32,605 nt of DNA, from the NCBI GenBank assembly GCA_023265155.1, contig JAHFUL010000019.1, positions 1 to 32,605 on the forward strand, written 5' to 3'. This stretch comes from Acidobacteriota bacterium (GTDB lineage Bacteria; Acidobacteriota; Vicinamibacteria; Vicinamibacterales; CAVVIG01). The notes below the pieces were generated by a model. It saw only the letters and a list, made by a program, of their open reading frames with translations, was not told where the DNA came from and made no database searches. Below are positions 3,064-4,364 of the stretch, piece after piece; within the stretch, counting starts at the first letter, position 1, and the number at the start of each line of letters is the position of its first letter. The position numbers were made by a program, and so were the translations under genes.

Positions 3064-3170
3064 ACCGAAAGCCTCTGCGTGAGGTTCTAAGTAGAAGGGA
3101 GTTCTGCCGCGATACCCGCGAACCTCAGTAACCCGCTAACCTCTGGGGGTGTGCTAGGGTATGAAATGAC

Positions 3171-3452
3171 ATGGCTTCGAAGTCGGCGCCCATCTATGCC
3201 AACGTGGTCCATATTCGGCTAACGGACAACGAGCTCGTTTTCGAATTCGGTTCGCATTTTCCGGATAAGGGGGCAGACCAGGCACCACCCTCAGACTACG
3301 TACCAGATGTGCGCGTGGTTTTGCGGTCCGGCGTGATGGAGGCGATTGTCCAGGCTCTGTCGAAGACCTTTGAGGAACGCCAGGAGGCGAACGCTGAAGG
3401 GAGTGGTACCAGCGCGGCCCCGAAAGTTGATATTGAGGTCCACAACCCATGA
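3171..3452 (+). CDS. Small conserved protein, DUF3467-like
   Basis: 93 aa; YANVVHIRLTDNELVFEFGSHFP...VPDVRVVLRSGVMEAIVQALSKTFEE resembles the DUF3467 pattern; ATGA overlap with the next ORF. Confidence 0.6.
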   Translation: MASKSAPIYANVVHIRLTDNELVFEFGSHFPDKGADQAPPSDYVPDVRVVLRSGVMEAIVQALSKTFEERQEANAEGSGTSAAPKVDIEVHNP

Positions 3453-3895
3453 CTCTGTGCGTTGCGGATTTTGCTGAGCCCGAAATTGTTTCCTGGCGCG
3501 TTGATAGCCGGACCACGGCTCCTGCTGCTCCGATCCGACCCGACGTCGTGGTAAGGCGCGTTACCCCTGCTGGTTTTTGGCTGCTGGGAGCGCAATTTTT
3601 TTGTTCCTTTGCAGATGTTCGTTCTCCACGGGCGGGTGTCATTACGCAATTGGAGGACGGCTATGAGGTTCTGCAGCCGATTCCGTATCGGGTTTCACGA
3701 CAGGGCGAGCAAGACTTCATTGCGACTTTTGAGGAGGGCAACATCGCGATCAGCGGTGTCGACCCGCACGATGCTTATCAAAGCCTGCTAGCTGATATTC
3801 TCGACACGTTCGACTCCCTTGTGGCCGCGCCTCGATTGAGTCCGGCCGCTGTCCGTCAGCTTAACGTGCTCCGCGAATTCATCAGGCGTGGCTAG
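3449..3895 (+). CDS. Hypothetical protein with HicB-like C-terminal region
   Basis: 148 aa; QDFIATFEEGNIAISGVDPHDAYQSLLADILDTFDSLVAAPRLSPAAVRQLNVLREFI resembles HicB-like antitoxin folds; start overlaps the upstream stop (ATGA). Confidence 0.55.
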   Translation: MTLCVADFAEPEIVSWRVDSRTTAPAAPIRPDVVVRRVTPAGFWLLGAQFFCSFADVRSPRAGVITQLEDGYEVLQPIPYRVSRQGEQDFIATFEEGNIAISGVDPHDAYQSLLADILDTFDSLVAAPRLSPAAVRQLNVLREFIRRG

Positions 3896-4166
3896 CGTTC
3901 TCACTGCGCGAGAAGCCCTGGCAATAGCGAAGAAGCTGGACGCAGAACTGTCTGAGGGCCGGAAACACCTACGGGTGACCGTTCGGCTCAACGATCAGTT
4001 GGTAGGCAGCTACGGAATTCGACGAGGCGGGAATCTCCCGCACGATTTCGTTCCCCGCCAAATTCACGCAACAACCCGTCAGGCGATCGATCTCGCTCGC
4101 TGTCCGCTAACAAAAGAAGCGTTCGCAGCCATACTGGTTCAACAGGGCATTATTCACGCGACGTAG
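3888..4166 (+). CDS. Small basic protein, HicA-like / candidate toxin
   Basis: 92 aa, GTG start overlapping the upstream stop by 8 bp; VTVRLNDQLVGSYGIRRGGNLPHDFVPRQIHATTRQAIDLARCPLTKEAFAAILVQQGII. Confidence 0.5.
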   Translation: MASVLTAREALAIAKKLDAELSEGRKHLRVTVRLNDQLVGSYGIRRGGNLPHDFVPRQIHATTRQAIDLARCPLTKEAFAAILVQQGIIHAT

Positions 4167-4289: not shown

Positions 4290-4364
4290 TGGTGACCCGG
4301 GCGGGGATCGAACCCGCGACCCTCTGATTAAAAGTCAGATGCTCTACCACTGAGCTACCAGGTC
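4290..4364 (-). tRNA. tRNA-Lys (anticodon TTT), CCA encoded
   Basis: Reverse complement GACCTGGTAGCTCAGTGGTAGAGCATCTGACTTTTAATCAGAGGGTCGCGGGTTCGATCCCCGCCCGGGTCACCA; acceptor GACCTGG/CCGGGTC (one T-G wobble), TTT anticodon, GGTTCGATCC T-loop. Confidence 0.97.

What the first reader, a model, noticed from the sequence alone, without database searches (positions are those of the whole stretch)
3171..4166. Three-gene, translationally coupled DUF3467-like / HicB-like / HicA-like cassette beside tRNA-Lys
Three short ORFs (93, 148, 92 aa) have overlapping stop/start codons (ATGA at 3449; GTG at 3888 overlapping a stop at 3895), so their products are probably made in fixed ratio. The second ORF ends in FIATFEEGNIAISGVDPHDAYQSLLADILDTFDSLV...RQLNVLREFI, resembling HicB-type antitoxin folds. 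The third (SYGIRRGGNLPHDFVPRQIHATTRQAIDLARCPLTKEAFAAIL) resembles small HicA-like proteins. The first resembles DUF3467, which is not a usual toxin-antitoxin component. A tRNA gene lies about 120 bp downstream, a common integration hotspot. A three-part toxin-antitoxin-like or defence module is the best candidate here for something undescribed.
Basis: partly seen in the sequence, partly recalled or inferred. Interest (0 to 1): 0.62.

Follow-up and report, generated by a model that had tools for sequence, protein, structure and literature searches.

The report
Diverged three-gene HicBA-like toxin-antitoxin cassette
Three tiny overlapping genes form a cassette that recurs in scattered bacteria: a HicB-type antitoxin, a HicA-like putative RNA-cutting toxin that standard profiles miss, and often a first gene of unknown function (DUF3467-like) that may control the antitoxin.

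Summary
In detail: ORFs of 93, 148 and 92 aa at 3171-4166, with an ATGA and an 8-nt overlap, 123 bp from a tRNA-Lys. No Pfam, NCBIfam, PADLOC or PHROGs model calls ORF2 or ORF3. The ORF2-ORF3 pair recurs intact, in that order, in 10 other loci of Acidobacteriota and Planctomycetota. A DUF3467-like gene precedes it in five of them. All three genes show purifying selection. ORF2 has a partial RNase-H (HicB) fold: HicB sequences rank first and second in a PDB profile search, and the best structural match is an annotated antitoxin. ORF3 is modelled with high confidence as alpha-beta-beta-beta-alpha plus C-terminal helices, with an invariant His where HicA has its GSH motif. An intermediate family links it to HicA, but Foldseek against the PDB finds no HicA. 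ORF3 was never found intact without ORF2, whereas ORF2 outlives it. The tRNA is not part of the system. Best reading: a diverged hicBA toxin-antitoxin pair with an optional third component acting on the antitoxin's disordered N-terminal extension; three separate deletions remove that extension together with ORF1. The third component's role is inferred. New variant of a known kind.

The parts
3171..3452 (+). ORF1, DUF3467-like first gene (93 aa); proposed accessory or control component
   Evidence: Pfam PF11950 E 0.0019, 18.6 bits, below the 25-bit cut-off; profile comparison with Acidobacteriota DUF3467 proteins z 11.8, 0/120 shuffles; DUF3467-like genes, 15-33% identical to it, in the same position in L018, L019, L025, L039, L040
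3449..3452 (+). ATGA overlap of ORF1 stop and ORF2 start
   Evidence: sequence
3449..3628 (+). ORF2 N-terminal extension (residues 1-60), predicted disordered, variable between loci
   Evidence: pLDDT 45-55; deleted together with ORF1 in L017, L023, L117
3629..3892 (+). ORF2 HicB-like core (residues 61-148), partial RNase-H fold; putative antitoxin
   Evidence: pLDDT 93-97, strands 78-85, 89-94, 99-103 then helix 106-126; Foldseek best PDB match 3k6q antitoxin, prob 0.99; profile search of PDB sequences ranks HicB 6u0i and 6hpb first and second
3888..4166 (+). ORF3, HicA-like putative toxin (92 aa), alpha-beta-beta-beta-alpha plus two C-terminal helices
   Evidence: mean pLDDT 89.8; linked to HicA through L043-L045-type proteins, z 19.9 and 7.9; adjacent to ORF2 in all 11 intact loci
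3966..3968 (+). His27 codon of ORF3, invariant in the close family, at the start of strand 2, where HicA has its GSH motif; candidate catalytic residue
   Evidence: alignments A4 and A9; strand 27-34 in the model; equivalence to HicA is inference
4041..4043 (+). His52 codon of ORF3, invariant in the close family, after strand 3
4290..4364 (-). tRNA-Lys(TTT); neighbour, not judged part of the system
   Evidence: absent from other loci

Best explanation
The cassette is a highly diverged hicBA-order type II toxin-antitoxin module. ORF3 is a HicA-like dsRBD-fold ribonuclease using a conserved histidine, and ORF2 carries a HicB-like partial RNase-H core that binds and silences it. Overlapping genes keep synthesis coupled. 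The frequent but dispensable first gene (DUF3467-like ORF1) is a third component that most likely acts on the antitoxin through its disordered N-terminal extension, stabilising it or sensing a signal, much as SecB-like chaperones act on the extensions of TAC antitoxins. Shown: the genes, their conserved order, selection, and the joint loss of ORF1 with the ORF2 extension. Predicted with good confidence: the ORF2 core fold and the ORF3 model. Inferred: ORF3 toxicity and RNase activity, ORF2-ORF3 binding, and every functional statement about ORF1.
For: Pair conserved in 11 loci. ORF2 fold is HicB-like and HicB tops the PDB sequence ranking. An intermediate family with the same gene order bridges both proteins at once: ORF2-like to far2 z 19.4 and far2 to HicB z 8.5; ORF3-like to far3 z 19.9 and far3 to HicA z 7.9. 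ORF3 model is alpha-beta-beta-beta-alpha with His27 at strand 2. A top viral structural match (prob 0.99) comes from a phage genome that encodes a 76-aa protein with a GGKH motif and a marginal HicA-profile match, E 0.02. Purifying selection. Asymmetric decay: in L017 and L117 ORF3 is deleted or frameshifted while the HicB core stays open, and no intact ORF3 was found without ORF2. In L023 one deletion removes the end of ORF1 and the ORF2 extension but keeps the core and ORF3.
Against: No Pfam HicA or HicB match for window ORF2 or ORF3; direct ORF3-HicA profile comparison is marginal (2/120 shuffles reach it); Foldseek finds no HicA for ORF3 among the 50 best PDB matches. ORF2 has no recognisable DNA-binding domain. 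ORF1 is missing or different in L021, L022, L026, L036. ORF1 and the ORF2 extension are adjacent, so one deletion can remove both without any functional link. Nothing was tested at the bench.
Confidence: 0.55

Rival explanations
1. A plain two-gene diverged hicBA toxin-antitoxin pair; ORF1 is an independent passenger with no role in the module.
For: ORF1 is absent or replaced by unrelated genes in 4 of 11 intact loci and partly deleted in L023, where ORF2 core and ORF3 stay intact. DUF3467 genes otherwise occur without HicB-like neighbours.
Against: ORF1 keeps the same position and overlapping junction in 6 loci from distant lineages, is under purifying selection, and ORF1-bearing loci tend to have longer ORF2 extensions (71-104 residues against 20-67, with L036 at 98 an exception, start codons uncertain).
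Confidence: 0.25
2. ORF1 supplies the missing transcriptional control: ORF2 lacks a DNA-binding domain, and ORF1 binds the operator or bridges the complex to DNA.
For: No HTH, RHH or Phd domain in ORF2; known DBD-less HicB classes leave regulation unexplained (PMC10865869).
Against: DUF3467-like proteins show no known DNA-binding motif in the profile searches; no palindromic operator found upstream of ORF1.
Confidence: 0.12
3. A domesticated or non-toxic regulatory pair that kept HicBA-like folds but not RNase toxicity.
For: Motif around His27 is GRKH-like rather than GSH and the distant L044/L045 relatives lack the His; sparse curated-profile support.
Against: His27 and His52 are invariant in the close family; patchy spread and loss of the toxin-like gene before the antitoxin-like gene fit a toxin.
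Confidence: 0.08

Closest known systems
hicBA toxin-antitoxin modules (HicA PF07927 dsRBD RNase; HicB partial RNase-H antitoxin), classes 2 and 7 of Gerdes 2024 (PMC10865869)
   Same: hicB-then-hicA order, small overlapping genes, HicB-fold core, alpha-beta-beta-beta-alpha toxin model, no DNA-binding domain in the antitoxin, patchy mobile distribution
   Different: no match to the curated HicA or HicB models, GRKH-type instead of GSH motif, extra C-terminal helices with an invariant Cys72, disordered N-terminal antitoxin extension, and a DUF3467-like first gene that is not among the 14 listed contexts
[quoted passage not shown]
   Same: TA pair plus a third small protein in one operon; antitoxin with a variable extension
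   Different: third protein is DUF3467-like with no SecB match, lies first in the cassette, and the extension is N-terminal instead of C-terminal; chaperone dependence untested
DUF3467 (PF11950)
   Same: ORF1 matches the profile at sub-threshold score; the other ORF1-like proteins share its C-terminal helix with the SP..A..L pattern
   Different: DUF3467 genes occur mostly once per genome in Acidobacteriota (180 of 297 genomes) and the 30 loci inspected have no HicB-like neighbour

Membership tests
HicBA type II toxin-antitoxin | conserved adjacent pair of two small genes | tested here: met
   11 loci, spacing from a 20-nt overlap to a 3-nt gap
HicBA type II toxin-antitoxin | HicB partial RNase-H fold | tested here: met
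   model and Foldseek 3k6q prob 0.99 (E 0.053); PDB profile ranks HicB first and second, though E-values are weak, 0.12 and 0.21
HicBA type II toxin-antitoxin | HicA dsRBD fold | tested here: inconclusive
   secondary-structure order fits, no HicA among best PDB matches, distant viral support, profile link only through an intermediate family
HicBA type II toxin-antitoxin | match to curated HicA (PF07927) or HicB (PF15919) model | tested here: not met
HicBA type II toxin-antitoxin | catalytic histidine in GSH-type motif | tested here: inconclusive
   His27 invariant and placed at strand 2, but motif is GRKH-like
HicBA type II toxin-antitoxin | antitoxin DNA-binding domain (present in many classes, absent in classes 1, 2, 7, 8 of PMC10865869, so not required) | tested here: not met
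   none found
HicBA type II toxin-antitoxin | RNase toxicity neutralised by HicB | not testable with these tools
   bench assay needed
TAC (toxin-antitoxin-chaperone) | SecB-like third protein | tested here: not met
   no SecB match for ORF1 or its relatives by sequence; the fold of ORF1 was not modelled
TAC (toxin-antitoxin-chaperone) | antitoxin dependent on third protein through an extension | not testable with these tools
   only the disordered extension and its joint loss with ORF1 are seen
DUF3467 (PF11950) | score above the curated cut-off | tested here: not met
   18.6 against 25 bits; profile comparison still z 11.8

The most novel reading that the evidence does not exclude
DUF3467-like proteins are a new, SecB-unrelated class of antitoxin guardian: the antitoxin's N-terminal extension makes it dependent on ORF1, so loss or titration of ORF1 frees a HicA-like RNase. 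An unrelated first gene (DUF6941-like in L045) may play the same part in the sister family.
Probability: 0.25. Interest if true: 0.72.

Novelty: new variant of a known kind. Interest (0 to 1): 0.47.

Why it matters
It extends the HicBA superfamily to proteins that current TA and defence annotation misses, and it offers a concrete case for asking how antitoxins without a DNA-binding domain are controlled and whether DUF3467, a widespread domain of unknown function, can act as a third TA component.

Tried and rejected
Searches of ORF1-ORF3 in plasmids, and of ORF2 and ORF3 in phages, gave nothing; a viral-contig scan with ORF3 gave no relative. A single-protein genome-contig scan with ORF2 found nothing. 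Folding ORF2 and ORF3 as one chain by reading through the two TGA codons of L027 was dropped because the alignment misplaced the ORF2 C-terminus. The CrpP, spanin and GNAT hits are far below cut-off or weak and rejected. tRNA-driven integration rejected as a general feature. The minus-strand ORF 3154-3642 rejected as a gene because the opposite frames are conserved. Defence-island enrichment was not tested against a control, so neighbours are reported only as context.

Full report
Observation. The three ORFs, their lengths and overlapping junctions are as described, and tRNA-Lys lies 123 bp downstream on the other strand. The cassette has 57% G+C against 64% for the window. The host is an unnamed, 66%-complete genome in the same phylum as named Acidobacteriota loci found below.

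Known families. Pfam finds only DUF3467 for ORF1, below the cut-off (18.6 against 25 bits), and nothing for ORF2 or ORF3. NCBIfam, PADLOC and PHROGs give only weak, unconvincing matches. The host genome has no match to the HicA or HicB_lk_antitox models.

Conservation. ORF2 and ORF3 each find relatives in sampled Acidobacteriota genomes, and a two-motif scan of 84,980 species genomes gives seven loci. With two Planctomycetota and further Bryobacterales hits the intact pair is known from 11 loci: the window, L018 (same record as L024, Thermoanaerobaculia), L019 (same as L027), L021, L022, L023, L025, L026, L036, L039 and L040. L036 is the most divergent, its ORF2 matching the profile only at E 0.0003. 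A DUF3467-like first gene stands upstream in the window, L018, L019, L025, L039 and L040. L021 and L036 have other first genes; L022 has a HigB/HigA-type pair (Gp49 and HTH_37) and L026 none. The system is rare: 4 of 396 sampled Acidobacteriota genomes match the ORF3 profile, one of them only at the E = 0.001 limit, and 2 of 294 in the phylum of L026. Nei-Gojobori estimates give dN well below dS in every usable pair, so all three genes are under purifying selection. ORF2 cores and ORF3 of L018, L022 and L023, from different classes, differ by only about 0.6-1.4 synonymous substitutions per site; this suggests horizontal transfer but was not compared with housekeeping genes.

ORF2. AlphaFold2 gives a disordered N-terminus (residues 1-60, pLDDT about 50) and a confident core (pLDDT 93-97) with three strands followed by a long helix. 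Foldseek's best PDB match is 3k6q, described as an antitoxin (prob 0.99, E 0.053); 2yzt, which I recall as HicB-like, aligns at 1.5 A over 43 columns. A profile of the family searched against all PDB sequences ranks 'Antitoxin HicB' first and second (6u0i, 6hpb), over the N-terminal HicB region (E 0.12 and 0.21).

ORF3. The model (mean pLDDT 89.8) is helix, three strands, then three helices, matching the HicA order plus extra C-terminal helices, as described for some HicA classes (PMC10865869). PDB Foldseek returns no HicA in the top 50 and no significant match. In the viral library a top match (prob 0.99) is a 76-aa protein of Synechococcus phage S-RIM8. That genome encodes a 76-aa protein with a GGKH motif and a marginal HicA-profile match (E 0.02), but I could not confirm that it is the same entry. 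Direct profile comparison of ORF3 with HicA is marginal. A sister family (L043-L045) bridges the gap: with ORF3 z 19.9 and with HicA z 7.9, none of 120 column shuffles reaching either score; its partner gene likewise bridges ORF2 and HicB, z 19.4 and 8.5. Two independent bridges in the same gene pair are the strongest argument for homology. His27 and His52 are invariant in the close family and Cys72 in all 14 sequences aligned.

ORF1. The window protein resembles DUF3467 (z 11.8), and the ORF1-like proteins of other loci do so over 23 columns (z 7.8), but the window ORF1 and the others do not match each other directly above shuffles. DUF3467 itself occurs in 180 of 297 sampled genomes, mostly one copy each, and none of 30 inspected loci has a HicB-like neighbour. 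The sister pair in L045 is preceded by DUF6941 instead. So the constant element is the pair; the first gene varies.

Natural deletions. L017 and L018 flanks are 96-98% identical, but L017 has lost ORF1, the ORF2 extension and most of ORF3, keeping the HicB core. L117 (second copy in one genome) has lost the end of ORF1 and the start of ORF2 and has a frameshifted ORF3. L023 has lost the end of ORF1 and the ORF2 extension but keeps core and ORF3 intact. Thus the toxin-like gene is lost while the antitoxin-like core stays, no intact ORF3 occurs without ORF2 (L041 is an interrupted fragment, L042 is cut by the contig end), and loss of ORF1 goes with loss of the extension. Adjacency alone could explain the last point.

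Context. Other loci lie beside a type IIG restriction enzyme (L018, L017), a truncated HsdM and a Schlafen AlbA_2 gene (L023), a HigBA-type pair (L022), a YhcG nuclease (L111), a BrnA antitoxin (L112), a DUF433 gene (L043), an HTH antitoxin-like gene (L115) or in a prophage-like region (L113). No control set was run, and the window copy itself sits between a cupin gene and the tRNA.

Comparison. Gerdes 2024 lists 14 HicA contexts; the passages and figure legend read here contain none with a DUF3467-like gene (PMC10865869). TAC systems combine TA pairs, including HicAB, with a SecB-like chaperone acting on a C-terminal antitoxin extension (PMC5105189). Full-text search found one paper mentioning DUF3467, on an unrelated subject, and none with HicB. 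Makarova 2009 treats HicAB as a strict pair (PMC2701414). The cassette works like HicBA and its antitoxin has the HicB fold, but it fails the curated profiles; it is filed as a new variant.

Noticed in passing
L043:992-1689, L044:1175-1758, L045:1486-2590: A second, sister family of HicB-like/HicA-like pairs in Bryobacterales, in L045 preceded by a DUF6941 gene; no curated HicA/HicB call.
   Followed up: partly
L113 (G613:C1:2736000-2750000): The divergent Planctomycetota pair lies inside a prophage-like region with capsid and virion morphogenesis genes.
   Followed up: partly
L018:7648-11658: A 1336-aa type IIG restriction-modification enzyme lies next to the cassette in both genomes of one genus.
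   Followed up: partly
L023:3604-4249: A deletion joins a remnant of ORF1 to the ORF2 core; the toxin-like gene stays intact.
   Followed up: yes
L036:2338-2943: An unrelated 202-aa first gene without family match precedes the Planctomycetota pair.
   Followed up: no
L119:35607-35837: Cyanophage S-RIM8 encodes a 76-aa protein with GGKH motif, annotated hypothetical, weakly HicA-like.
   Followed up: partly
window 3171-3452: The host genome holds two DUF3467 matches; one is probably ORF1 and the other an ordinary copy elsewhere.
   Followed up: no
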